Source of the DNA: Branchiostoma floridae
Lineage: Eukaryota; Chordata; Leptocardii; Amphioxiformes; Branchiostomatidae
Direction: 5' to 3'
DNA: 64,000 nucleotides
NCBI RefSeq assembly: GCF_000003815.2
Contig: NC_049992.1
Span: forward strand, 10,622,728 to 10,686,727
In this document: one piece after another, positions 12,472 through 55,600 of the stretch
Numbering within the stretch: the first letter of the stretch is position 1
Layout: each line of letters begins with the position of its first letter
Translations under genes and position numbers: made by a program
Notes under the pieces: model-generated
What the model was told of the DNA's origin: nothing
The model's input: only the letters and a program-made list of their open reading frames with translations
Database searches by the model: none

Positions 12472-14683
12472 ATGATCCGGAGAAACGTAACAGGTGCCAT
12501 CGCCCAGGCGGTTCGGGACGTCACGGAAGTGGTCGGAGTCTGCGAAGTCTTGGGTAATGTGACCACGGGTAACAACACCTTGACTGCCGTGGTTTTTGAG
12601 CCGGCCTTCTGTGGTCTGTACGGGGCAGTACCGTCCCTAGCGCCGCTGCTGATTCTGGTCATGGTCTGCTTCCTTCTCCTCTCGCTGTTTGGTAACAGCT
12701 GCCTGGTGGGAGTCATCTTAACTACGGATTACATGAAGGTAAATGTGTACCTTTCCATTCAAACGTCTAGATCTACTACTAGTGTCAGTGTGTCTTCTTC
12801 AAACGTGAGGTGAATGTAACAGCCGAGGTGTGTAGCAATAACAGTCCCGCCCGTGTTATGTTTTTTAAAGGTGGATAAAAGTGTATTTTTGTAGCTTTAG
12901 AAATAATTACAGAAATGTGGACGATTGCACGTAAAAATGGATACTGTAAATCATGTCAAGTGTTGTTAATAAGAACTGCATGGCAAGACTTTGATTTGAT
13001 ACATTATATTCCATCGTCATACCGTTTTAAATAGTAGCCTGATTCATATCATGGCCCATACTGCACACTAAAATGTACGAGCCTGGTTCTGCAGACAGCC
13101 TCTATTTCAGGGGTGCCTAAGCATTTGCACGAACCCTATGAAATTCGTACGAATATTATGTGATACACACGAATCACTATGCGAAAACGCACGAATATTA
13201 TGAAATTCGCACGAATCACTATGCGAAATCGTACGAATTTTATGAAATTCGCACGAATCACTATGTGACACACACGAGCCTTATGTGATTTGCACGATCC
13301 TTATGCAAAAACGGCGGCCGGGAGGAGGCATGATTTTGAGCGTTTCTACCCGAGATATTTATATTTCAAGGCATGGAATGGACATTTACCGTCGCAAAGA
13401 TGTATTTGATAGCCTGTGAGCTACTGTTTAGCTTCATTTCGGCGTGTTACATCGTATTTTCAGTCGGCGAAGCGGCGAAGCCGCCATCTTGAAAATCCCG
13501 CTCCGTTTGTCACGTGACCCCGCCAGTGGTTGCGCAATTTCGCATAAGGATCGTGCAAATCACATAAGGCTCGTGTGTGTCACATAGTGATTCGTGCGAA
13601 TTTCATAAAATTCGTACGATTTCGCATAGTGATTCGTGCGAATTTCATAATATTCGTGCGTTTTCGCATAGTGATTCGTGTGTATCACATAATATTCGTA
13701 CGAATTTCATAGGGATCGTGCAAATGCTTAGGCACCCCTGTATTTGCAAGTTCAAAATACTGTATAGTGATAGGGGGTTTGGACAAGTCCGTAAAATGTC
13801 CGCTTATTACAAAACAACAATGCTAATTCTTATATCATATATCTAGCTCACACCGTCCTACTTTCAGGAACCCGGTAACTACTTCCTCGCCGCCATGGCC
13901 ATCACCGACACATCACTAGCCATGGCCTACAACCCCATAGCGATATACAGTTTAGCACATGGTGAATATCCGGCCGGGCCATGGTGCAGGCTACAGGCCT
14001 TCTTCATCATTTTCCTGTCCATCTTGTCCATTCACTCGCTTCTCTGTGTGTGGATCTGTCGCTACATCCACATCGCATTTCCACTTCACTACAAGAAAGT
14101 CCTGACCCGTCGGCGGATGGTACTAGTCATGTGTCTGTGTGTCCTGATCGCAGTCATCCCCGCCGCCGTAGGAGTGTCTCCTATCCATAGCCTGGCAGTT
14201 GGGGCTGCTGAGGAAGTCCTCAGAGGCTTTGAGAAACCACAGACTTTGATGACACCGTGCTTGGCTGGCCCCGAGGGCCTAAAACTAGCCTTAGTCATCA
14301 ACCTTCTTGCCATGGTAGGTATCGTCTTCCTAGTCAGTCTCATTTACTGCGAGACCAGACGAAGCCAGAAGAAACACGACCAGAAGGTGACGTGGAACGC
14401 CCAGGCTGAAGATCAGGAATCCAAGATGCAGGCGGTCCACACGCTGCTCATCATCGTGTTGGTCAACTGGATCACGTGGCTACCGGCGTTTGTTGTTAGC
14501 GTCTCGATGAAGGCCGGCTCGATATCCCTGGCTACCGCCGCTCCCTGGTGTGACATCACCACCATTGTCCTGCAAAGCGCGACGTTCTCCGACTCTCTCG
14601 TCTACGCGTTTCGCTACCGGATTTACCGTCGGGCGCTCAAGAAAATGTATGAAAATATTCATTCTATTTTCACTAAAACCTAG
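12472..14683 (+). CDS. Orphan rhodopsin-class (class A) GPCR, two exons
   Basis: Exons 12472-12738 and 13868-14683, joined in phase 0, give 360 residues. The extracellular N-terminus (about 1-60) has two N-glycosylation sequons (NVT, and NNT before the first membrane segment). TM1 (about 62-84) has the GN motif; TM2 carries the conserved Asp (LAAMAITDTSLAM); the Cys before TM3 is present (PWCRLQAF). The E/DRY box reads CRY (WICRYIHIAFPLHY). TM4 lacks the usual Trp. TM6 has NWITWLPAF in place of CWxP, and TM7 ends DSLVYAFRYR in place of NPxxY. A short basic tail follows. These are class A features with three altered microswitches. The single intron falls in intracellular loop 1, right after TTDYMK, and contains a large foldback element. 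The ligand cannot be inferred; it resembles lancelet-type orphan receptors rather than a named vertebrate family. Confidence 0.85.
13108..13740. mobile_element. 633-bp foldback element in the GPCR intron
   Basis: Two arms of about 200 bp (13108-13310 and 13537-13740) are near-perfect inverted copies, starting CAGGGGTGCCTAAGC and ending with its complement. Each arm is itself built of alternating units such as ACGAATCACTATGCGAAA and ACGAATATTATGAAATTCG. The 226-bp centre is unique and more GC-rich. TATTT flanks both ends (likely target duplication). Confidence 0.85.
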
Positions 14684-16134: not shown

Positions 16135-19100
16135 ATGGGTGAGTTTACAGACGTTTTCGTCCAAATCTCTAAATGTTCTCGTCCTAAAATGCACAGATTT
16201 ATGTTGCTATAACATAAGCACGCAACCTTTCCTGTTTTTGATTGTGAAAACTTTCCTATGAAAGTACACGGCCCCTTTTTTCTACATTCCTCTAGAGTAA
16301 GGAGGTTAAAGAAACCTTTAACCTCCTTGGTTAGAGTAGACATCATTCCTGCATGCATAAGTATACATGTTTGTTTGGATCTGATCTCTGTTGACTTTTT
16401 GTGATCGCAGAGCTCATACATAATTTCTAACAGACAGTGTTTTACTGTAACAAAATTCCGTAGACGACCTTGCATGGGAACCAACAAACTAGTAGAATGG
16501 GGGTGGCGTAACTTATATCGGTTTTGTTTGATTTTTATAAATACGGTAATTATTAATTAGGAATATCAAGTCGAATGCGGTGGTTTCAAATTATTTTCAA
16601 CTTGTTGCAGTTTAAAACCAGCATCCGTAGAGTCGATATTCCTAATAGTAATACTTTTTTAACGTAACATATATAAATATAGGTTACCCCGAGGATAAAG
16701 GTGAACTAGGCGTTACTTTGGCATTGTTTTGAGCGGCACCGCACCGAGAGCAAGTCTATGCATCTTTACATGTAGGTTTCCAATCGTATTAATAAATCTC
16801 ACTAGTAAGTCCCTGTTTTTTTTCTTTTGTTTTCAGATCACAAACAAAAGCTCGCAAGATTTTGTAGAATTTGTTGGGATTAGATTTTTAGAAAAGGTTA
16901 TAAAGGGTGAGGCTGTGAATACTATGCTATCCGACAAGCTTCAAGATTTTGTTCCACATGGAGACAGTTGCAACATCTGTATGCCAAAGAAACCTGGAAG
17001 GCCAATTAAAAAACACCCAGGGTTGCGAGTGAAATCAGAAGTATCCATGAAGGATGTGCCATTGACATCTAAGCTCTACCCTTGTACACCTGAGCGATCA
17101 ACAGAGCCCTGTGTACCTGAACGATCCACAACAGAGTCCTGTGTACCTGAGAGATGCAAAACAGAGCCCTGTGTACCTGAGCAATCCACAACAGAGTCCT
17201 GTGTACCTGAGCGATCCACAACAGAGCCCTGTGTACCTGAGCGATCCACAACAGAGTCCTCTGAGCGATCCACAACAGAGTCCTGTGTACCTGAGAGATG
17301 CAAAACAGAGCCCTGTGTATCTGAGCGATCCACAACAGAGCGCTGTGTATCTGAGCAATCCACAACAGAGCCCTGTGTACCTGAGCGATCCACAACAGAG
17401 TCCTGTGTACCTGAGAGATGCAAAACAGAGCCCTGTGTACCTGAGCGATCCACAACAGAGCGCTGTGTACCTGAGCGACCCAAAACAGAGTCCTGTGTAC
17501 CTGAGCGATCCACAACAGAGTCCTGTGTACCTGAGAGATGCAAAACAGAGCCCTGTGTACCTGAGCGATCCACAACAGAGCGCTGTGTACCTGAGCGACC
17601 CAAAACAGAGTCCTGTGTACCTGAGCGATCCACAACAGAGCCCTGTGTACCTGAGCGACCCAAAACAGAGTCCTGTGTACCTGAACGATCCACAACTTTA
17701 TATAACGTCTTTGGCATGGGCGAACAATCTGAAGCCAAGCAGGGAAACAAAACTGAACTACCCCAAACCAAAGAACCCACCCTTACCCAACAACCTCAAA
17801 GGAAGGAGCCTACCCTAACCCAACAACCTCAAAAGAAGGAGCCTACCCTGACCAAACAACTTGAAACTATGGAGGTCAGTTTGACCCAACAATCCCAAAC
17901 CATGGGGCCCTACACAACTGAACAACCTCAAACCAATGAGCCGACTGTGACTCAGTGTCAAACAATGGAGGTAATCTTGACTCCACAACCTCAAACCAAT
18001 CATGCCGAGATGCAGACAGTGATGCCCAACATTGCTTCCAAGAAAACCTGTCTGTTTTGCCAGAAGGTGATTACTTGTAGAAATTATCGGTCCATATTTA
18101 GTGAGGCTGTAGTGGAGGTCCATCCACAGATTCAACAGATCTTTAATCTATGGCCTGACAAGGAAGTCTGGACTAGGAAAGGGCTGTCCAACATCGTGTG
18201 CCAGCCTTGTTTTGGAAAGCTGAAGAAGCTTGTCAAGATTGATGAGGAATTGTCAACAATACTACAAAGACTACAAGAAGAGAAACAATCCTTGATAAGG
18301 ATATTACAGAGCAATGCCAAGATACCCACCAGCCTAGAGGATACACCTGTACACACAACTCCTACAGAACCAAAGTCAGCAGGTGTGAAGAGAAAGGGGA
18401 GGGAGAAAACAGAAATTCCTCCAAAAGTGATTAAGAGACATCTAGCCAAATATGTGCCTATTGCTCCAGCTGGGATCCCCTCAGAATTGGAAAAGCGACA
18501 TCTAACAAAATATGTACTAATTGCACCTGCACCAGTACCACCCCCAGCCCCAGACAAAAATATGGCTCCTACTACTAGACTTACTAGTGACAGTTGTATT
18601 CCACTGAAGAATGAGCAGGACAACCTGATACAAGATAGCACTGGCTCGCTAATGGACACAGTTGACACAGCAAAGGTAAATGGCTTTCTTCATTTGATTC
18701 AGACACACAACTTTCAAACTGCATGATTCTTCTTACCATGTCCGAAGGTCTAATAGAATTATGCTTGTTTACCAGGCCTTCATATTGTACATGTATTATA
18801 TAGTTGAAGCAGTGGCTATGGTAAACCAGCATGCATTCGGTTCTAGGGGTATTGATTACAATTGACCTGAGCTGTCATGAAATCAGATACTCCTTCAGCA
18901 TACATGTTTGTCTGACTGTTAAAATAGGGGGGGGGGGGGGGTACCTGTTTGTGTTTGCCCGTAGTGACAATGTTTATAGTGTGTGACAGGATGTGAGGCA
19001 GAAGATGGTGTTAGTGGAGACTGACAGGATGGGAAGGTTGGCTTGGCCTGGGCCTGAGGTCAGTTGTGCAAGCTGGCAGGATGGGATTGGGAGGATTGGC

Positions 19101-20222: not shown

Positions 20223-23200
20223 TTACCTGCTCAAATACATGGTCATCGGAATGGCTGCCGCGATGCTGATGAGGTACACGACAAGACACAGCCTGTCCAG
20301 GACCCTAGCCAACAAAGTGTAGTCGGACACCTCTTCCTCGTTCTTAACTGCCTTGGTCAGCTCATCCATCCCTTTCTTCACCACGACAGTCAGTTCCTCC
20401 ACACTGGAGATCAGGGGAAGAAATCCACGGGAGTCAGCGGACTGAGGATCTGTGAAAGGCTTTGGTGACCGTTTGGTTGTCGCTGGGTCTTTGCTGCTTG
20501 TAGAGTACCACATTTCAGAGGTACTCTCCCCTTCGGACACTTTTGCATCAGTGTTGGAGGAGTAGTTGATCAGCTCTATGGCAGAGTGGATATATGTACG
20601 CTCCTCTGTGAGGTCTCCCAAAAGTAGAAACCTTCACAGACAGTAAAAGAAGGAAAGGGAGAAAGAACATTGTCATCTTTACCATAAAGGGGCATTTTCA
20701 TTGAATTGCATTTTTCATTGCTCCTTGCAAGGTGCTCCTTGGCACCACTCAGGTTTGAAATGTGATGTGTTCGGAATGATACCGACAGTCTTGACACCCG
20801 TTTTATCTCTTCAGGATTAATGTTTAACTTTGGAAGACAGTATAGATAAGGTTTATGTGAACCACTGAGACATTGAGTGATGTACTTTCAGGTTAGTCAT
20901 ATTCATTATAAACATCCACGATGTTGAAATGAAAAGTTCCTACCTTGCCATGTAACGGAGAAGAAAACTTCTCGCCATTGCAGACATTTGTCCCTTCTTG
21001 TCGTGAACAAAGATGATGGCGATGGTGAAGAAGAGGAAGAGCCCCATCAGGCCCATGCACACGATAATCAGCGTGGCTGTGCAAAACAAATGAAGCATTA
21101 CCAGAATGCAGGGGTTTTGCAAGTTCAATCATATGTTGACCCTGTCGGCTTTGTATGGTACTGCAGCAGAACTTTTGGTTTTCATCAGTCTTCAACAAAT
21201 GTTTTAAAAATTGCTTTCTTTCTAAATCATAGATAATCACTAAATATATACTTACCAAAAAATGGCAGAGCCCCCTTGACTGGAATAACGTCTGTAACAA
21301 ACACTAGAGAGACGACCATAGAGAGCTGAATGGTCACTCCAAAGGAGATCCGGTCTCCCTTGTCCATAGGCATGATGAAGGTGATGGTCATCAGCACAAT
21401 CAGGATGATGCAGGGTCCAACAGTGGTGGCGATGTGGAACGTGGGAATCCTGGACAGTTGTAGAGCAAAGCACGCTTCCTTCTTGTCTTTAGTGAAGATC
21501 TTATCCCTTCGATACCATTCTCCCTCCGGTATTGCAGGGGAGTAAGAGCCACAGGGATGGCTTTCCTTGTGTGCATCTGATGGCGAGCTTTCCCCGTGGC
21601 ATTCTGTAATCAATATACAATTGCTGCAGATTACTGTCTCTAGGAGCTTTTTAAAAACATATTGCATATAGGACTTGTGTGCGAAATACTATTGGCGTCT
21701 GAAGATTTGCTCACTCATGCATTGTCTCTGAGAGATATCGATCGTGAGTACTTCCCATTATTAGTACTTACTCTTCAAGCTAAGGCTAGATTGCTAGGAA
21801 AGGGTATAGAGAGTACTTTCATGTAGACTATTGCATCAGCAAAAGTAAAGGAACGTGCTGTGTCGTATAGACAAGCGTATAAGGTTCGTCAAAGTCTTAC
21901 GAATGGTTTGTTCGATCGCTGACGCTGCAGAAAAGCAGATGTGACAATCCATGGTGTCTGCAGGGAAGTAGAAGGGGTCAGCATCACACACGGTTGTGGT
22001 CAGGGTTTCCACTCTCCACTGCACCAGGCCGCTGCTGCTGATGCGGATCGGTATGTCCTTTGGTAGGCCTTGGCGGAGGCGATTAGCACTGGAAGGTAAA
22101 AAAAAAGACATTTATTTTGCATAATGAAAAAGACACAACGTCTTGCCAGAGAGTTTTTGTCTCTTTGGTCCTGCCAATCTTTTTCTCTGAAAAGTTTAAA
22201 CATATATTCTACTGATATGTGCTTTTGATCAGGGTACAGCCGTGTTATGTATGAAAAAAAAATGTTAGGTTGGCGAAATTTTATTGCCTTTTTTGTATTA
22301 TCTGTCTTTGGTTAGTTGTAAAGAAATCGTGACACCTACTTCCTCTTCAGGGTAAATGATGGAGTCCAAATATCGTCACCAGGGACACTGAGCGTCTGGA
22401 CACCACCGTAGTGCCGCGGGTTCCATTTCAGTCGACTGTCGTGCCATGACTAGGAAAGATAGATGTCTTTTTGTGCGATACCGAATGGAAAATTGCAATA
22501 AAAAGATCTACTGATCATTGCAATCCAAATGAACGTGACCGAAAGCGGCCTCAGAGATACGAAGCCTGTGCAAACTTACGAGGATGATGATCATAGAGGC
22601 GATAAGCCGCTCCTTCTTTTCATCCTGAAATAAAAATGATAGCTGTTATTAAAGCTGTGATGCATGTTTCTCCTACATATTCAAAGTGTATTTGTTGACA
22701 ATTAGAAAAGACAAGGATTTCTATTTCAGATAGTACGTACCAAGTCGACGATTTCCTCCACATCCCCCGTGAAGTTGATGGTAACATTTTCAGGCGCCAG
22801 ACCAGCACTGTAGGCCTCTAGCAGCTCCTTTCGCAGCTTTTGCTTCTGGTTGACTGAATGTATAAAAGATACATATTAGTGAGTTGTTAGAAAGAGATTT
22901 TGATGATCTGTGTCTATCAAAGGCTGTGTACAATTAGCAAGTGTAAATTTTACAAAGACTCCGTACGTAGCAATCACCTAGGCAAACGGGCTTGTCATAT
23001 TCCCAGGTTCCTCCTTCAAGGCAAGTCGCTTCTCTCGGGGAGCCGTACTCAGGCGTGTAGCCATCGTTGCACGTGTACGTGACCTTCTCTTCTAAGAAGT
23101 AGAACCTCTTACTGGGAGTTCTCTTGCCGTAGTTTGGAGGACCTCTGTCCCAACAGCCAACAAAATCTAAGCGTAGTAAGATATACAAAATACATGGTCA

Positions 23201-26200
23201 AAATCATCGTGTAGCTGTATTGAGTTTTGTGATATTCGATATGCTTCAAGAAGTCAGCAACACACCATTCCCATGACGTAAGTGTTTTGAAACATCTTAG
23301 CTAAACTATGTTTACGTTTATGAAGATATCCATCCACGTGAACAATATTCAAATGCAATCTATTTCTATAGCTGGATAAAAACGGAGATTTACTTCCAGA
23401 CGTTTCGAGTGACATCCATCACTATTCTTCAGTGTCACTTATCTACTAAGAATGGATTAAATGGTTCTAGTGACGCTGGAGATGAGTGATGGATGTCACT
23501 CGAAACGTCCAGAAGGAAATCTCCGTTTTTATCCAGTTGTAGAGATTGAATTGTATTTGAATAAAGTACGTTTAGTGTAGATCACCTACTACCGTTTATG
23601 AACAGACAACTTACTGCACGGAATGACGTCACATTCCTCCTGGCTACCGTCTCCAGTCAAACAAAATGGCCGTTGGATTCCGGTCGGGTTGCGGCAGTAG
23701 TTCCTGTCCAGGTTAGCCCAGGGGTACTCGGCCGTGTAGTAATCCGCTTGCCCAGCTGACCACTGAAGGCAAGCTGCCCCGGACGCCGTTTTACTCCATG
23801 TTCCAAGGTAGTTCATGCCAATGCCGTGGTAGCAGACTGAGGAAAAGAAAAAAATCATTAATTTACCTAGTTTTCTTTAAAGAAATTCTGAATAAATGGC
23901 CTATTTTATGAACGTTTTGTAACGACCATGAGATGCCACTGAATTGTCCCCGCACACAGTATGAGCAACTCTGCAATAGGTAAAGTTGATGTAGTTTTTA
24001 AAAAGTGAAAAAGATATGATATATAATCAAAATGTAATATGAAGCTCTGATTCCCACCTTCCGTGCCGATAACATCTGGTTCCGGGTTCCAACAGCCGTG
24101 CTGTGATGACGGGAACACATCACATGGCGGCAGCAGGTCCCTCATCAGATCATCACTCATAGTCATACTGAACACTTCCTCACACCAAGAGCGGCACGGC
24201 AGAAGTTGTGTACCACTGTTATACAAAAAACCCAACTAAATTCAGTACCACATGATAAACATGTTTGAGTGCTACCACTACAAGACATTTTTGACTACCG
24301 TGCATACAAGTCTGTACGATTAAGCCATATGGTAAAAGTTTTTAGTCTATTAGAAGCACTTCTTATGAATAAATGTAAGCATCAATGACTGTTGGTCAAT
24401 ATTGGAAACTTCCTAAATGAAGAGCAGATACTCTACGTATAGCCTCCTTCGCAGACTTTGAGCGGGACTGGCTGGTTCGTGATTTTCGAGGTGGGGCGAA
24501 ACACTCTTTCATGGAAAAATCTCCCTTTTTCGGAAAACTCCCTTTCCCGGTATTAGAAAACCTTAGTCAACGTTGAAAATCGCGAACCAGTTTCGCTCGA
24601 AGGAGACGAAAAAGGCTACCATACGTATTGAGAATGAATCATATTGTACTCCAATAGACGTATTGGCTACTCACACACATGAGGTCGTGGTGTTTGAAGG
24701 CGGGCGCAAAGAACACTGGGACATGTCTTCTTCAGGAACGTTGCATCGTGGGAAAATGGCGATAGACAGGAATTCTCGTAACTGCGGATGGTGTTCTCCC
24801 TGGACGCTGTTGGAATTGTGGAGAAGTTCCACGACAGAGGAATTCTGTATATCATCGAATGTCGTCTGGTTCAGTGGATTTGGTAACATTGTGAGTCTGC
24901 TGCCGAGCTGGAAAATCTCCGGGATGTGGAAGCAACCTATAAATTGAAGAACAAAAAAGAAATGGCTTTCAGTATACATGTCTTTGAGGGCAACGTAAGA
25001 AGTTTTCACTGGTGAAATAAGGATGCAAACTTTATTGTCGGTAAATATTCCCGTGTTCTTATATGTCAGCTAATTTTTTTTATGGTGGTGACACCAACTT
25101 ACCACAATTTTCCTCGTCACTCTTGTCCGAACAGTCTGCGGTTCCATCACAGCGCTTCCATGACAGGATACAAGAATATCCTTCTCCACAGCGGAAGTAT
25201 CCAAGGTCGCAATTGACTTTCTCTGCATGGAAAAATCAACAGTTCGTAAATTGTGTTGTTCGTATTCGTAGCTTTCAATCTCTCGCGCTGATGAGAATGG
25301 AATATTTTCCGTTTCTAGTAGTTTTTTACTTCTCCAAAGAAGCATATGTGTCTAAGAAAGTAATCAAAAAAACAAACAGACTTTTTGGATAACATGTACT
25401 CAATCCCTCCATAGGTCTATGTCTGGTATACGTATATATTTAGTTCTCATGATCTTTGCTTGCAAGCTTTTGTTCTTATATGAATGTTAGAAGGCAAGTT
25501 CTTATCGAAGATGGTCACAACACAAAGATTACCTCTGACTCCGTACAGCTCCACTTCCCGAACCCACGGCTGATACCCTGACCATGTGCGGGAGATGAGG
25601 AGTCGCCAGTACCGCGCCGTGGCCCGGAAGCCGCCGTACTCCTGTCTTGCGTCGGTTCCCGCTTCCACGTCAGTGACGGTCGTGACGTCTACCCAGACGT
25701 ACGTCGGGTCTCCGGTCAACGACTTCTGGAGGCTGAAATCCTTGATGTCGTGCGTGGTGTCTCCAATATGGCTGATTCCGATACGGGAGAGTGTGTAGCG
25801 TGCGGTGAGATCAAGCACGAAGTTCCATTGGTTGTAATACTGAGGAACTCCGGAAGGATTCCAGTAGCTGTAGGTGTTTCCGTCCAGGGCGTTGCCGGGA
25901 CCTGTTGTCCCGGAATAACCAACAACCCATGACACATCTCGTGTTAGCCAATCAGCTGTGGAGGAGGCGTGGATCAATTATCAAACATTTATGCAGTAAC
26001 GATTGCAGGCATATAATTCATTTCATGTTCGTTAGAAGTTATTTAGCATTGCCAGCTAAAAGCATGAAACCACTTTTGAAATTTCATGTTTATTCGGTCT
26101 TTAGGAGCAATGGAAAACATACGTACATATATGATTATAAGCATTCCTTCTTCTTTAAGAATGGGTGAAATATACTTGATGTAATGAATTTCTGTGTGGT

Positions 26201-27223
26201 TATACATAATGAACCATGTTTTACCTACTCTTAATAATGTTTGATACATTGACATGGAATCTTCCCCGGTTACTTAACGGATGGAATGTGCTTAAGTAAA
26301 GTTTTACAGTGTACTGTTGTCTAATGTCGTCTCTGCCTCTGGGTATTATTTGTACTTAGTGTTGAAAATTAATTGCTGTAATATTTCATGTTTCAAGCTG
26401 CCATATTTGTAGCTATCCTATTTCTGTCGACACACCCAATGGAGTTGATTATTGCTTTGCATTGGGTGTGTCCGTCTGGGCGATATAATTATTCTGATGA
26501 TTATATTCGAGACCAAATTATCAGCAGCAAAATATACACAAATAAAAATCATGTCAGAATTTTGGCAGATATACAAACAAACGGTGCCGTGAAAGAAAAT
26601 CGAAACACACTAACATATTTGAGACAAGGAAACTGATACTCAAACGCCCATTATATTTGAGTGTGATATTTGAGTTAAAGGGCAAGGTGTGTAATTTTGT
26701 TTTGGGGATGGAGCGAGGGTGTTGTAGCATCTGTGTTAAGGAAATAAGCAGTAAGAACAACAAGAGACCATCTGTGCATTGGCTATAAAACAGGTGTGTG
26801 CAATAGATTTTGATTTTGCGTGCGCTCTCTATCATTTTGAGCATGCTAGCACAAAAAGATAATTCATATATGTACATGTATAGATATTGAGATCATCAGA
26901 TAATTATAATGGCACTTACCTCTCACGATCATATGATTATAATTTTGTGTGTTAGTGCATGTGTGTGTGTGGTTGTGTGTGTGGTTGTGTGTGTGTGTGT
27001 GTGGGGGGGGGGGGATTGTGTGTATTTGTGTGGTTGTGTGTGTCTGTGTGTGGTTGTATGTGGTTGTGTGTGTTGTGTGTGTGTATCTGTGTGTGTGTGT
27101 GTTTGTGTGTGTTTGTGTGTGTATGTTTGTGTGTGCCTGTGTGTGTGTCCTGTCTATACCGCCCTTACCTGAGACAAACAGCAGACAGCAGGTGACCACA
27201 ACGATGACAAGTTGGCCTCTCAT
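20223..27223 (-). CDS. Modular Cys-loop receptor: discoidin-like, LDLa, Frizzled CRD, kringle, sushi, nicotinic-type channel
   Basis: Fourteen minus-strand exons, all in phase, encode 924 residues: 27169-27223, 25533-25955, 25103-25222, 24675-24936, 24058-24215, 23615-23836, 22978-23166, 22741-22853, 22580-22624, 22340-22449, 21901-22088, 21256-21603, 20944-21076, 20223-20631. Domains: signal peptide 1-18; F5/8C (discoidin)-like 19-159; LDLa 160-199 (CDGTADCSDKSDEENC); Frizzled CRD 200-339 (GCFHIP...PLNQTTFDD...LPCRSWCEEVF); kringle 340-413 (CYHGIGMNYLGTWS, NYCRNP); sushi 414-476; ligand-binding domain from 477 (LSWHDSRLKWNP, DDIWTPSF); Cys-loop CDADPFYFPADTMDC; M1-M3 in 629-788; a long M3-M4 loop; M4 near the end. 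M2 is preceded by GDRIS, like the GEKVT of cation channels and unlike the PAR of anion channels. Expected to be a plasma-membrane pentamer subunit. Fused neighbouring genes are unlikely because all junctions agree in phase and there is one signal peptide and no internal stop. Confidence 0.9.
23346..23565. mobile_element. MITE, 220 bp, CTGGATAAAAACGGAGATTT arms
   Basis: Arms of about 75 bp, containing GACGTTTCGAGTGACATCC, are inverted around a short centre; the ends read ATTCAAAT and ATTTGAAT. It sits in the intron between the kringle and sushi exons. A degenerate relative is at 52905-53026. Confidence 0.8.
24433..24627. mobile_element. Inverted-repeat element in the Frizzled-CRD intron
   Basis: Left TACGTATAGCCTCCTTCG and right CGAAGGAG...AGGCTACCATACGTA are inverted, with CTGGTTCG-GATTTTC shared further in. 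It separates the two exons that together encode the Frizzled CRD. Confidence 0.65.
26945..27155. repeat. TG-rich microsatellite with a poly-G tract
   Basis: About 200 bp of interrupted (TG)n on the plus strand with a run of G near 27003, lying in intron 1 of the modular receptor. The open frames across it are low-complexity artefacts. Confidence 0.95.
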
Positions 27224-49649: not shown

Positions 49650-52600
49650 TCACGAGTGTTGCCACCAGGCCATGGCTACAAAGTTGGCCACGACAGCGAG
49701 GCTGACCACCAGGGCAAACACCTGGAGAGGGAGAGTGGACGTGGAATCATCCGGAGGGTCATCTTCCAAACCTGGAGAACATGGTACTCGTCAGTTAAAC
49801 GGCCAGACTTTGTAGCTTGAAAAACAGCGCTAAAATTCAAGGAGACAGCAGACACACGTTGCTAGAACGTAAAAGTGTGACATTGGGACACTTTACTGAC
49901 GGTTATTCCTAGCGTAAGAAGAATTGTATCCTTTGTCTTAGACTTAGGCCTACGTCACATTTCCAAAACGAAGCCCGGCCGGTCGGGCAGCTTTCAGGAA
50001 CGGTACACAAGACGTCAAGAGAATAGTTGTAGGCATTTTTCTGTAACGTATATGTAATACTCCACCGTTGACGTTTTTGGTTGACATCGACAACTGTTCT
50101 TGGTAAAGACGCTTCGGTTTATTTGTATATATTGTTTGTTGTCCTCTGGTTGTCTTACTGAATGTAACACGTTTCGTTTTTGTTATTTATGTAGTGGGCC
50201 CCCCTTGGAAATCAACTTCAAACAAGTTGAAGGGGCTACCCACATGTTTTGAGATGAATAAATAAATAAATAAAACTGTTACATTTCAATTTTTCGTTTC
50301 CACAAACAGCCCGAACGGGTCCCGGTATGGAAATGTTGCTTTGGCATTAATCGGAATAAGCGAGTCCGGTCCATCCAAGTTGTCAGAGAAGGCACCTCTC
50401 TACATCTCTACTATCGGTCATGTACTAGTATATACATGCAACTCACAAATCAGCGAACTGTTGGGTCCCGCCTCTAACTTGAAGATGGTTCCGTTACATT
50501 CCGTCTGAAGAAGCTTCTCCCAGTCTTGAAGATAGCTGTCGTTCCAAGATGACAAGTTACCGATGATCTGCTTATAGGGATAGGTAGGGTACTCCCCAGG
50601 GGTAGATTGCGCTAAAGAATAGAAAATACAGGTCTCGTTATACATGTATAGTATTGTTTACGCAATCACAAGTCTTGATCAGTTTTTTGTACCTACCAAA
50701 GATGTATAGATACATAGTATTGGGTAGGCTTCAATAGGTCAGAAAATCGCTAAAAAAAGACATTTGATACTGGTAGTGTGATTGTATGTATGATGGATGA
50801 TTTAGAGTATAGCACAATGTCAAATCGTATGATAAATATATATCGATAAACGTAAACTTGATATCTAATTCTTGCAAAACAGCAGAAGTCCACATGTCAT
50901 AAGTATCGACTTGACGGTTTATCGACGTCATTCTTAAAGTTCGAAATCAGCTGTCATGATGTTGTAATGTAGTTTCATCCATAATTGGAATCTATTGTAT
51001 AGTGTTCTACTGATCTGGTAGTACCTGTTTGATCTGTAATATCAAACGTTGTGTTGACTCTAGACGACTCGGTACCGTTGAACATGGTGGCATCGTTGTC
51101 ACCACTAGAAGTACTGGTCCTGTTCAACGTGACGTTCTTGACCACAACATTCTGATCAGAACCAAGGACTGTGACGGCGAGAAACGTTTTGATCTCACTT
51201 CTGCTTTCCGGCTCCTTTGTTGCGGTGAGAATTGGAACGTTGTCTTCAAGGTCGATGCTTGGAACGTCAAGGTCACTGATGTTGGGTTCAGTGACCTGAC
51301 AGAGGTCACCGCCGAAGCCGTGAGGACAGAAGCAGGTGAAACTTGCCACGGCGTCACGACATGTTCCGCCGTTATGGCAGGGTTGGGACAGGCACTCATC
51401 TGTCTCTGGAAAATAGAGATTCGGTAGGTCTATATATATATGTTATCTTAAAACTGAGGGTGGGGTGGAAAATCTTAACGTTTCATTGCATATTGCAACC
51501 TTGTTTTTCTGAGGAAAATGGCACACAATGGTTGCGTGCACATGTTGGAATTGTTCCTAAAATGTTATCGTTTACAATATCCAACAACAAGTAGCTCATC
51601 TTGCCATCAGTTGAATCTACGTATACGCATACGTACCTTCCTCACACCTGTCTCCTTCGTACCCGTCTGCACAGTTACAGAAGAACTTGTTAACTCCGTC
51701 TGAACACTCGCCATTGTTTAGACATGGAGAAGATTCGCACTCATTGATGTTTTCTGTGAGTAGAAAAGAGACAAATCTAGTAGGGACGATACCAAAAATT
51801 ACCACAGATGATCACTTAGAATTTGTTTCCCGTCTACGTATGGGCACATTAAAATAAAACTATGCTTATTTTAATGTGGATATAACTGATTTGATTGATA
51901 ACAAGAGAAAAAAAAGCGGTGTACCGAGACATGTCTGCCCACTAAAACCCGGCGAACAGACACAGGTGAAATTGTCGATCCCATCCTCGCAGGTACCTCC
52001 GTTTGCGCATGCGTCCAAGTAGCAATCATCCACGTCTAAAACCACGAAAGAAAAATCATTTGTAAATTCATTCAGTTTTCTAAGTAATAAGCCCTATGTG
52101 GTACAAGCAGAAGCTTCAACAATCAATCTGTATAAATTCTTTCAGATTATAGGAAAGGTATACATTTACAGTAATCGACCGAGTGGTATATCTAATTTAT
52201 TAAATCCTCGCCAGTTTAGCTTATAGTGTTTAACTAATTGCGTAGCTATTAACTTCTGCGAAGGGCTGTAAAATTGCTTGCTCAATATTATACAGAGTAC
52301 AGCACAAATTATGATGGTGGACAATAAGTTTAACTCACTTATCTCACAGTCCGTCCCGTTGAATCCCGGCAGACACGCACAGCTGTAGGAAGCCACGCCG
52401 TCAGTACAATTTCCGTCATTCAGACATGGGTCCGAGGCACACTCGTCTACTTCTAAAGTTTGCAAGAAATTAGTTTTCAGACTGATTCACAAAATAGCTA
52501 ATTGTATATCATTAGAAAATAAAAATGAAACTAGGTTATGAATCGTTGTAAAGTTTAAAAACTTTGTTCCAACACAAAAGAAATGATGAACTCACCATAA

Positions 52601-55600
52601 ATTTTCGGTCAAACTCGTCTATGAAAAATGAGATTTCATTCGTAGATTATGAATCGATTGTCGAAATTAAGAAAGAAGTGTTAATATATAACATTAAAGA
52701 GAGGACACAAGTATACCTTCCTCACACCTCTCTCCTGTATACCCATCTGTACAGTTACAGAAGAACATGTGGATCCCATCTATACACGTGCCGTTGTTCA
52801 GGCAGGGAGAGGACGCGCAGTCATCCGGGTTTTCTATTTTCGGTGTAAAGATTATATATAACTCATGAAGACACGTGTATGAAGGTTAGACATCCAGGTA
52901 TAAACAACATTCAAATCAATTCGATCTCTAAAACAGCATAAAACGGAGATTTCCTTCCGGACGTTTTGACTGAAATCTCCGTTTTTATCCTGTTATGGAG
53001 ATTGAATGCATTTGAATAACACATGAAGACTATCAACACAACCAGTGTATTTTTTTCTTGCAGCCGTGAGTCATAAGCTTGTTGTCTATTTCAATATCTA
53101 AGACATAACAATCCTAGTATTAGCTGAGAAATCACATGGCACAAATGTACCTTTTCCTGCCTCTCTGTGATTTTCATTCATCTCTTGATAGATTATGTTA
53201 CGCAAGCACCTAGATGTAATTGTAAACAGAGGAGGAAGGCAACTATCACCTGTACAGGTCGGCCCGGTGAATCCTGGGAAACAGAAGCAGGTAAAGCCGT
53301 TGATGCCGTCCTCACAAATCCCTCCGTTTGCGCATGCGTCTTTGTGGCACTCATTTATGTCTGGAATCACGGCAAAGGAAACAGTCACTTTGTTAACTAA
53401 CAATTGAACAGCACAAAAACATCATGGATCCTACGAGCTAAAGTTTTGTAAGGTACTGAATATCAAAACAGATCAATAGCAAAAAAGTCTGAGCGGCGGT
53501 CTGTGAATATCGTAATGGTTTGTGTAACAAAGTCAGAGAAAGAAGAAATGGCCGAACGTTACAGAGAGGTTGATAGATGAAACACTTACTTATCTCACAA
53601 TCAGTCCCGTTGAATCCCGGCAGACACGCACAGCTGTAGGAAGCCACGCCGTCAGTACAGTTGCCGTCATTCAGACACGGGTCCGAGGCACACTCGTCTA
53701 CTTCTAAATAGGGAATAAGAAGTCATGTATCGTTCACGATTCTGCGACGTCTAGTGATAATTGAGTAAAATGCATATTGGAATATATGGGACAATCAACA
53801 TTGATGTTGATTGGCTAAGACCTAAACTCTCGCTCACGTGATTGGCTAAAATTTCAGCACCATGGCCAGTGGCAGGTACTTCTTCTGACAGGTGAGTCAA
53901 AAATTTACCGTTGGTTTGTATGTGCTGTGCTTTCGTTGATTCTACAATTTGTACGTTGACGACCACGAAGTTTGACTTACAATGTCTGCTATACGTACCT
54001 ATAGAACAAGTAAAACCCATGTATCCCTCCGGACAGAAGCACATGAACGACTGAGGAGCGGTAACACAAGTTCCACCATTCTTGCAAGGATCGGACTCAC
54101 AAAAGTCCCTGTCTGGAAAAGAGAGTGTTTCTGAGACAAAGCATTTGAGATTTTTCGGATGACATGGTCCTTGAATTTTGAGGAAGAAAGCTTTCAAACA
54201 TGTACGGATATTGTTCGAAGGTTTCTAACGTACCTTCCTCACAGTTGACTCCTGTATACTCCTGCGGACACACGCACACATAGGACCCCACCTCGTCATA
54301 ACACACTCCGCCGTTTTGACACGGAGTCGACTCACATTCGTCAATTTCTGAAAACAAAGTGAACAGAGGTGCCTCGGTCATTTCTTGGCTTATTTGCAAA
54401 AAGATGATTAGGTCAAAATGAGATACTAGTATACCATCCAGCCATATGCGATAGGTCATGAAACGGGTACGACAATCGGAGAATCAATGTGTTCATTGAG
54501 ACTTGCAGTTTGACATTTTCCATGACTTTACGATGCCTTGAAAGATATATGTACATCTTCGTAAGAAATCAAATATAGCAGTTGATAAATCTTTGTTCAG
54601 CAATACAACGTTTTAAAGAAGACCTAGAGTGTAGAGGACAGGGTAGTACCTTGCTGACATTGTTGTCCTGTATAGCCTGGCTCGCAGACGCAGGAGAAGG
54701 CGCTAGTTGTAGGGTCCGGGGAACATGTACCTCCATTCCGACACGGATTCGGGATACAGACTTCACGAAACGATGTCAGTTCTAGTGCAGAAATGAAATA
54801 CGAATAGCTCTCAATTATAACATCAAATAAAGCAACTAGAACACTTCTAAAGAAAATTGGTAGAGAATTCTTGAAAAAACGTTTCCCATACTGTACATGT
54901 CTAAAAAAAAGTTAAGCCGCACCTTCCTGACAGTTGGGACCAGTCCAGCCGGAAGCACACCCGTCCCGACATTCCCCTGTGTAACGGTCACACGCCTCTG
55001 GACCAATACTGGAGCAGTGACAGGTGGACTGACAGCCAGAGCCGAATGTGCCCGGACTGCAGACTACATGTACAGGATCAACAGTGTTTTACACGGCATT
55101 AGCTTCCGTAGATAGTTTCATCAGGTTGGTATACACTCAAATAAATAGCAGTGATAAGTAGATCCAGCCATTCTACTCTTATGATGGTGTCTGATAGACA
55201 CCGAAACGTTGGAAATGAGTACTATTCTGGTTGTGTTAGAAGAACTTTACTATAAAGTTATTAGCTTGTTCTGAAGAACATTTAACAGTTTAACATGTTC
55301 TCTATCAATAGTTTAATCATCTCCCCAAGGTATCGCCCTTCCAATTCCTCAAGAGTCGCTAGTCTTCTGACCATTTTCTATTTTCTCACCTCGCTGACAG
55401 AGGAGTCCAGTGAAGCCGGGGCCGCAGGAGCAGCCGTACGGCTCGGGCAGACAGAACAGGTGGCCCGAGCAGCCTGCTGGGTCGTCCCGCCCCGACTCGT
55501 CACAGCGGAAGCTGCAGTCCCGCCCAAACCTGTTACCTCCACAAGCTGTTGGTAAAAGTCACAAGAAGTTCTCAAGAGCAAATAGAGTATGAAAAGGGAC

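What the first reader, a model, noticed from the sequence alone, without database searches (positions are those of the whole stretch)
20223..27223. Cys-loop receptor channel with a five-module ectodomain (discoidin-like, LDLa, Frizzled CRD, kringle, sushi)
Seen directly: 14 minus-strand exons with consistent phase, a single signal peptide and a single stop encode these modules followed by a complete nicotinic-type ligand-binding domain and four membrane segments. Known Cys-loop receptors have only a short leader before the ligand-binding domain. I know of no named receptor with this architecture; novelty is therefore inference and needs a search. It would be a ligand-gated channel with large adhesive or ligand-capturing arms.
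Basis: partly seen in the sequence, partly recalled or inferred. Interest (0 to 1): 0.95.

Follow-up and report, generated by a model that had tools for sequence, protein, structure and literature searches.

The report
Nicotinic-type channels with modular adhesive arms
This genome, apparently a lancelet's, carries dozens of genes in which a neurotransmitter-type ion channel is fused to a chain of adhesion-type and lectin-type modules, which might let such channels sense surfaces or large molecules instead of a small transmitter.

Summary
Fourteen GT-AG exons (27223 to 20223, minus strand) encode one 924-residue protein: signal peptide, F5/8C (discoidin), LDLa, Frizzled-type CRD, kringle, sushi, complete Cys-loop ligand-binding domain, M1-M4. 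It does not look like a gene-prediction chimera: of 58 M1-M2 places matched in the same genome, 56 have a kringle upstream on the same strand, detected modules in the same order; 0 of the 29 best Pfam LBD places do. Splice positions and purifying selection (median dN/dS 0.21-0.28) are alike in module and channel exons. Best reading: a large family of orphan cation channels with exchangeable heads on an LDLa-CRD-kringle-sushi stalk. Transcripts, ligand and conduction are untested; no other animal genome was searched. A 2022 paper says N-terminal domains are not observed in eukaryotic homologues; bacterial relatives have others.

The parts
27169..27223 (-). exon 1: ATG and signal peptide, ends in phase 1
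   Evidence: in-frame stop just upstream
25533..25955 (-). exon 2: F5/8 type C (discoidin) head, symmetric 1-1 exon
25103..25222 (-). exon 3: LDLa module, symmetric 1-1 exon
24675..24936 (-). exon 4: Frizzled-type CRD, first part
   Evidence: family member L049
24058..24215 (-). exon 5: Frizzled-type CRD, second part (exons 4+5 together symmetric 1-1)
23615..23836 (-). exon 6: kringle, symmetric 1-1 exon
22978..23166 (-). exon 7: sushi, symmetric 1-1 exon
22854..22977 (-). 124-nt intron between sushi and ligand-binding exons; little room for a separate promoter and leader
22741..22853 (-). exon 8: LBD, start
22580..22624 (-). exon 9: LBD, 45 nt
22340..22449 (-). exon 10: LBD, 110 nt; same exon borders in the 4 of 8 other nicotinic-type loci where the exon was found
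21901..22088 (-). exon 11: LBD with the Cys-loop (C-x13-C) and FPAD
21256..21603 (-). exon 12: end of LBD, M1, pore helix M2
20944..21076 (-). exon 13: M3
20223..20631 (-). exon 14: intracellular loop, M4, stop

Best explanation
SHOWN from sequence: one gene model encodes a Cys-loop (nicotinic-branch) channel subunit with a row of phase-1 modules between its leader and its ligand-binding domain. It belongs to a family: 56 loci with channel and kringle, 41 of them with four or more of the five stalk modules LDLa-CRD1-CRD2-kringle-sushi, and, where a head was found, an outer F5/8C, F-type lectin or C-type lectin domain. INFERRED: subunits assemble as pentamers with arms standing on top of the ligand-binding domains, where the N-terminus of this fold lies. 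The pore is cation-selective. Acetylcholine is not the ligand. The heads bind glycans or other surface molecules (self, microbial or matrix) and either pass strain through the stalk to the LBD or bring a second ligand to it, opening the channel: a contact- or glycan-sensing receptor family (chemosensory or immune), diversified by head swapping and gene duplication.
For: Gene model and domains. 56 of 58 M1-M2 places with a kringle upstream, 56 of 56 in order; none of the modules downstream on the same strand among loci without a family neighbour there; 0 of 29 other LBD places with such a kringle. Splice sites exactly where predicted: 179 of 206 starts, 175 of 189 ends. Median dN/dS: LDLa 0.21, CRD 0.26, kringle 0.24, sushi 0.25, LBD 0.23, TM1-3 0.28. 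Distant paralog L049 (M1-M2 exon about 53% identical) keeps LDLa-CRD-kringle-sushi-LBD-TM. Heads: C-type lectin 79-86 bits in the 3 scanned, EPN and WND in 4 of 4 read (meaning of the motifs recalled); the 14 best of 150 scored matches (1161 candidates) all lie within 15 kb upstream of family channels; an F-type lectin head matches FBP32 at 2.9e-41 and eel lectin 1k12 at 1e-11. Tree: head labels need 7 changes against 12.1 in shuffles (the label 'unknown', 6 rows, counted as a state), and starred branches force at least 2 for the F-type head. Tested ACh positions (loops A, B, D) not aromatic in 12 of 12, no vicinal CC in 12 of 12; -1' Asp and 9' Leu in 12 of 12, 20' Asp/Glu in 12 of 12.
Against: No transcript, protein or current was examined. 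30 of 58 loci have no head found with the seeds used. Some copies may be dead: in the automatic models 4 of 10 complete ectodomain blocks carry stops (one also an N gap), against 0 of 16 channel blocks (4 of the 20 loci gave no complete channel block). Five further channel blocks were not in the 12-row alignment; one of them, L044, and the distant L049 have Gly at 20'. The F-type head read has Gln where the fucose motif wants His (alignment; motif from PMC5712786 passages), so sugar binding may be altered. The kringle lacks the usual lysine-site residues (site recalled). The window gene's own head is F5/8C, with only weak PDB matches, so its ligand cannot be told. I know of no Cys-loop receptor shown to open on a glycan (recalled, not searched).
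Confidence: 0.6

Rival explanations
1. The arms anchor or cluster the channel rather than gate it. In other animals sushi, LDLa and CRD-kringle proteins act in trans on acetylcholine receptors (nematode LEV-9, LEV-10, CAM-1/ROR; MuSK; all recalled). Here the same module classes would act in cis, holding channels at matrix or synapse while an unknown small molecule opens them through the LBD.
For: Module classes coincide with those clustering factors (recalled); CRD next to kringle in that order as in ROR (order recalled; the kringle matches ROR1/ROR2 at about 7e-9); LBD and Cys-loop intact.
Against: Does not by itself explain why the outermost module is exchanged for lectin folds, nor the loss of the aromatic positions in 12 of 12; the kringle scores better against plasminogen than ROR.
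Confidence: 0.27
2. Gene-prediction fusion: a module protein and a channel are neighbours, not one gene, the error described for lancelets in PMC4967905.
For: That paper shows such an error in lancelet annotation and names a Neur_chan_memb architecture among those it treats with caution. Modules of the family also occur without a listed channel exon at two places.
Against: Same order at 56 of 58 places on 19 contigs; no Met in the first LBD exon and only 98 (L047) and 124 nt (window gene) between sushi and LBD exons; conserved splice phase; without the upstream leader the channel could not enter the membrane in the usual way.
Confidence: 0.04
3. Mostly a non-conducting adhesion or immune receptor (or an accessory subunit) that keeps the pentameric channel fold as a scaffold.
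For: ACh positions lost and four extra invariant LBD cysteines could lock it.
Against: Pore-lining residues, FPxD, pre-M1 Arg and M1-M3 are among the most conserved parts.
Confidence: 0.09

Closest known systems
Nicotinic acetylcholine receptor subunits (Cys-loop family)
   Same: LBD plus four TM segments, C-x13-C Cys-loop, FPxD, cation-type M2; borders of the 110-nt LBD exon as in L005-L008 of this genome; best PDB matches are nAChR beta, alpha-7, alpha-4, with 5-HT3A close behind
   Different: about 458 residues of modules before the LBD; tested aromatic positions and vicinal CC absent; extra LBD cysteines
DeCLIC and other bacterial pLGICs with N-terminal domains
   Same: extra domain in front of the LBD in a pentameric channel (PMC9897478 abstract and introduction; PMC549065 passages)
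   Different: bacterial, no Cys-loop, other domains; PMC9897478 states that such a domain is not observed in any eukaryotic homologue
Octopus and squid chemotactile receptors
   Same: lineage expansion of nAChR-derived channels that left acetylcholine (PMC11526382 passages)
   Different: conventional extracellular part as far as I recall; sequences not compared here
Alpo4 of Alvinella (orphan nAChR-like)
   Same: orphan, no CC tip (PMC10338036 passages)
   Different: keeps the aromatic cage; no modules mentioned in the passages seen
ROR / MuSK receptor kinases
   Same: Frizzled CRD followed by kringle (recalled)
   Different: kinase instead of channel; no LDLa or sushi (recalled)
Lancelet adhesion GPCRs with kringle, LDLa, discoidin, C-type lectin N-termini
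   Same: same module classes on another receptor type in Branchiostoma floridae (PMC2246102 passages)
   Different: 7TM receptor; orders not compared

Membership tests
Cys-loop receptor / pLGIC | LBD and four-TM domain in one chain | tested here: met
   profile 2-196/216 and 2-225/233
Cys-loop receptor / pLGIC | Cys-loop C-x13-C with [F/Y]PxD and pre-M1 Arg | tested here: met
   both Cys, F131, P132, D134, R204 invariant in 12 of 12 rows (12 of the 17 channel blocks in hand)
Cys-loop receptor / pLGIC | pentameric ligand-gated ion conduction | not testable with these tools
   needs expression and recording
nAChR, cation pore | acidic -1' ring, Leu 9', acidic 20' ring | tested here: met
   12 of 12 each; outside that alignment L044 and L049 have Gly at 20'
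nAChR, acetylcholine site | aromatic residues of loops A, B, D and loop C vicinal CC | tested here: not met
   no aromatic at the A and D positions in 12 of 12, at B in 11 with 1 gap, no CC in 12 (loop C tyrosines and loop E not scored); other loci L001, L002, L005 keep loop B Trp and L002 keeps YECC
nAChR gene descent | shared LBD intron positions | tested here: met
   110-nt exon borders identical in 4 of 8 loci (L005-L008; not found in the other 4); start of the next exon identical in 3 of 8 (L006-L008)
DeCLIC-type pLGIC | extra N-terminal domain before the LBD | tested here: met
DeCLIC-type pLGIC | no Cys-loop cysteines | tested here: not met
   Cys-loop present
DeCLIC-type pLGIC | homologous N-terminal domain | not tested
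   the two kinds of N-terminal domain were not compared
Frizzled CRD | Fz profile and ten cysteines | tested here: inconclusive
   window gene 8 conserved Cys and sub-threshold; paralog L049 ten Cys and 64.4 bits: descent supported, window copy degenerate
Cephalopod chemotactile receptors | activation by hydrophobic contact ligands | not testable with these tools
   no assay; sequence comparison not done
ROR/MuSK | tyrosine kinase domain | tested here: not met
   none

The most novel reading that the evidence does not exclude
The first eukaryotic Cys-loop channels with large N-terminal accessory domains: a family of about 50 lectin-gated cation channels in which exchangeable heads on a fixed stalk turn contact with a glycan-bearing surface directly into current, an ionotropic counterpart of pattern-recognition or chemotactile receptors.
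Probability: 0.3. Interest if true: 0.97.

Novelty: new variant of a known kind. Interest (0 to 1): 0.9.

Why it matters
Animal Cys-loop receptors are regarded as architecturally uniform: PMC9897478 (2022, introduction) says the N-terminal domain is not observed in any eukaryotic homologue, and PMC549065 (2004, passages) calls the known forms stereotypic. A family of dozens of such genes in what appears to be an invertebrate chordate would break that rule, points to exon shuffling into the leader intron of a nicotinic gene, and offers a way to ask whether binding of a surface or polymer can open a pentameric channel. It also bears on the doubt in PMC4967905 whether lancelet domain novelties are prediction errors.

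Tried and rejected
Prediction artefact: considered first and held unlikely. Canonical nAChR with acetylcholine as ligand: rejected on the residues tested. Frizzled label: doubtful on the window sequence alone (no hit; no PDB hit at E<=10) and accepted only after the distant paralog. Lysine-binding kringle: not supported by the residues (site recalled, read by eye). ROR as source of the kringle: plasminogen scores better, left open. No structural model was made: structure prediction accepts sequences that the DNA gives letter for letter, and a spliced protein or a whole-genome paralog is not clearly among them, so none was sent. Ten paper searches were made: searches returned no paper; some searches returned lists (one search showed 12 of 60), of which I looked into nine papers; none of the text I saw describes this family, apart from the one mention in PMC4967905. 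PMC6071037 holds none of the six terms asked. No animal proteome or transcript set was available, so novelty and lancelet-specificity rest on these searches and one genome. The organism is named by no tool; 513,431,437 bases with chromosome-sized contigs fits Branchiostoma floridae (recalled).
Full report
1. Observation. The minus-strand exons were rebuilt from the bases: 14 exons, 13 GT-AG introns, joined phases, 2775 nt with stop, 924 residues. Module borders follow exon borders. Entry phases of exons 2-8 are 1,1,1,2,1,1,1, so F5/8C, LDLa, CRD (two exons), kringle and sushi are each symmetric phase-1 units lying between the leader exon (55 nt, ends in phase 1) and the first LBD exon (starts in phase 1). 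This is the classic mark of exon shuffling into the leader intron (established knowledge).

2. Domains. The weak point was the Frizzled CRD. In the ten family members aligned, eight cysteines are invariant. The distant paralog L049 has ten, and a strong Fz match. Read by eye, the window type lacks the cysteines at positions 2, 3, 4 and 8 of the Frizzled pattern, which are two whole disulphide pairs in the known structure (recalled), and has two new ones. I take it as a derived CRD rather than a chance likeness.

3. Not a chimera. The channel half was searched in the whole genome (102 matches, 94 of 504 candidates scored). I took the 58 places covering M1-M2. With module positions (capped lists), and limits of 12 kb for sushi, 35 kb for the other stalk modules and 45 kb for F5/8C, 56 of 58 have a kringle upstream on the same strand, 47 a kringle and LDLa, 41 at least four of the five stalk exons; taking the nearest match of each kind, 56 of 56 are in the order sushi, kringle, CRD2, CRD1, LDLa going away from the channel. 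Controls in the same call: on the same strand downstream, none, counted only for loci with no other family channel nearby downstream; on the opposite strand within the same limits, kringle at 5 loci, CRD2 4, CRD1 4, LDLa 3, sushi 1, which I read as neighbouring family genes but did not check one by one. The two exceptions are C16:2345465 (sushi only) and C13:11568861 (31% identity, also among the general LBD places). The 56 lie on 19 contigs, 49 of them on contigs numbered 1-19 and 7 on C221, C230 and C256, which may be alternative haplotypes; L032 and L033 have identical channel rows. As a further control, of the 29 best Pfam LBD places, 0 have a listed family-like kringle within 35 kb upstream.

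4. Twenty paralogs were fetched and modelled automatically. Exon starts fall on the predicted AG in 179 of 206 cases and ends on the predicted GT in 175 of 189. Of 20 loci, 16 gave a complete channel block to M3, all 16 without a stop (the start of each exon was chosen so as to avoid one; last exons run to a stop by construction). Ten gave a complete five-exon ectodomain: six open, three with stops, one with stops and an assembly gap. dN/dS medians between paralogs are alike in module and channel exons (0.21-0.28). Exons with stops, gaps or no splice site were dropped beforehand, as were pairs with dS over 2 or under 0.15, so dead copies are under-represented there. Highest values among pairs used were 0.77 (kringle) and 0.71 (sushi); the L029-L030 kringle pair, dropped for its dS of 0.04, stood at 0.97.

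5. No hidden second gene seen. Between sushi and LBD exons lie 124 nt in the window gene and 98 nt in L047; the median of 18 copies is 536 nt. The first LBD exon has no Met. PMC4967905 (section 12 read) describes how a lectin gene and a neighbour with its own leader were wrongly fused in lancelet annotation; I see no such inner leader here. The same passage mentions a conserved lancelet architecture with Neur_chan_memb (269420_PRF0), which may be this family; its table could not be opened, so this is a lead only. If it is, the architecture is shared by two species.

6. Exchangeable heads. Upstream of LDLa, other paralogs carry other outer modules (nine loci looked at). L037, L039, L041 and L047 have a C-type lectin domain; three were scanned (79-86 bits) and all four show EPN and WND, which in known lectins mark calcium-dependent sugar binding (recalled). 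In the four, the exon is flanked by AG and GT in phase 1 (bases printed, phase read by eye). Used as a query (150 of 1161 candidates scored), its best 14 matches all lie 4.7-11.3 kb upstream of a family channel. L032, L033, L035 and L038 have an F-type-lectin-like domain; Pfam gives it only as F5_F8_type_C_2, but the joined L032 exons match FBP32 at 2.9e-41 and eel lectin at 1e-11. L032 and L033 have an extra kringle (93 bits for L032), and L035 also pieces of a C-type lectin (29 bits). The window gene and its relatives L029 and L030 have F5/8C. By: C-type lectin at 15 of 58 loci (one also with a remote F5/8C), F-type at 9 (three also with F5/8C; one, C3:9265565, 35 kb away), F5/8C alone at 4, none found at 30. 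On a channel tree of 22 rows head labels need 7 changes against 12.1 in shuffles, with 'unknown' counted as a state; the F-type head sits in two supported clades (one of them L035 with L045, whose head is the remote one), so heads have probably been swapped at least once.

7. Channel. Descent from the nicotinic branch is indicated by PDB matches and by the 110-nt LBD exon, whose borders coincide with those of L005-L008 of the same genome (not found in L001-L004). PMC6354393 (section 6 read) says three introns are common to all vertebrate nAChR genes. In 12 aligned members the A and D positions are not aromatic, B is not aromatic in 11 and a gap in 1, and no CC pair occurs, whereas -1' Asp, 9' Leu and 20' Asp/Glu remain in 12 of 12, and four further LBD cysteines are invariant. 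The 12 were chosen from 17 blocks; L044, left out, and the distant L049 have Gly at 20'. Thus a cation-type channel without the acetylcholine site (inference).

8. Mechanism. The modules should stand above the LBD, as does the N-terminal domain of DeCLIC (established for the fold; PMC9897478 seen in abstract and introduction). Two lectin folds and a discoidin fold in the outer place, on an otherwise constant stalk, point to recognition of glycans or surfaces, with the pore as the output. The expansion and loss of the acetylcholine site parallel the cephalopod chemotactile receptors (PMC11526382 passages). The main rival is anchoring or clustering in cis. Both leave the agonist open. Steps shown from sequence: gene model, family, heads, lost positions, kept pore. 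Steps inferred: transcript, assembly, conduction, ligand, gating.

9. Novelty. Bacterial relatives fuse other small-molecule domains to the LBD (PMC549065 passages), while the known forms are described there as stereotypic. In the text seen from my ten searches nothing describes this family beyond the PMC4967905 mention. Hence a new variant of a known kind, with a case for more if gating by the head is shown.

Noticed in passing
G000:C5:4743573-4749095 and G000:C8:9515978-9519575: Sets of stalk modules (with a C-type lectin at C5) for which no channel exon of their own is listed (positions); soluble or broken relatives, or channel exons not scored.
   Followed up: no
G000:C1:24529789-24530693: LDLa and C-type lectin matches with the same scores as those at C5:4744361 and C5:4743573; perhaps a detached duplicate of two exons.
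   Followed up: no
L049 2120-2499: The first 18 residues of the kringle exon occur three times at 163-nt spacing before the full kringle exon.
   Followed up: no
family loci: Intron-bearing copies are scattered over 19 contigs rather than in one tandem cluster; how whole genes were dispersed is unexplained.
   Followed up: no
23359-23549: 81-nt inverted repeat (86% complementary, 29 nt between the arms) in the intron between kringle and sushi exons; perhaps a small mobile-element hairpin.
   Followed up: no
26952-27166: Long CA-rich simple repeat directly behind the signal-peptide exon.
   Followed up: no
13847-14680: Rhodopsin-type GPCR sequence on the + strand (7tm_1, 9.2e-20).
   Followed up: partly
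16705-18723: 673-codon open frame with many near-identical short repeats; no Pfam match at E<=0.01.
   Followed up: partly
50978-54911: Minus-strand frames with EGF-like modules (by eye; EGF 1.7e-9 for the one piece scanned), another modular extracellular gene.
   Followed up: partly
L047 159-2669: Two similar frames upstream of the C-type lectin (one scanned, no Pfam family) and a further sushi frame (48.6 bits); part of that gene or of a neighbour.
   Followed up: partly
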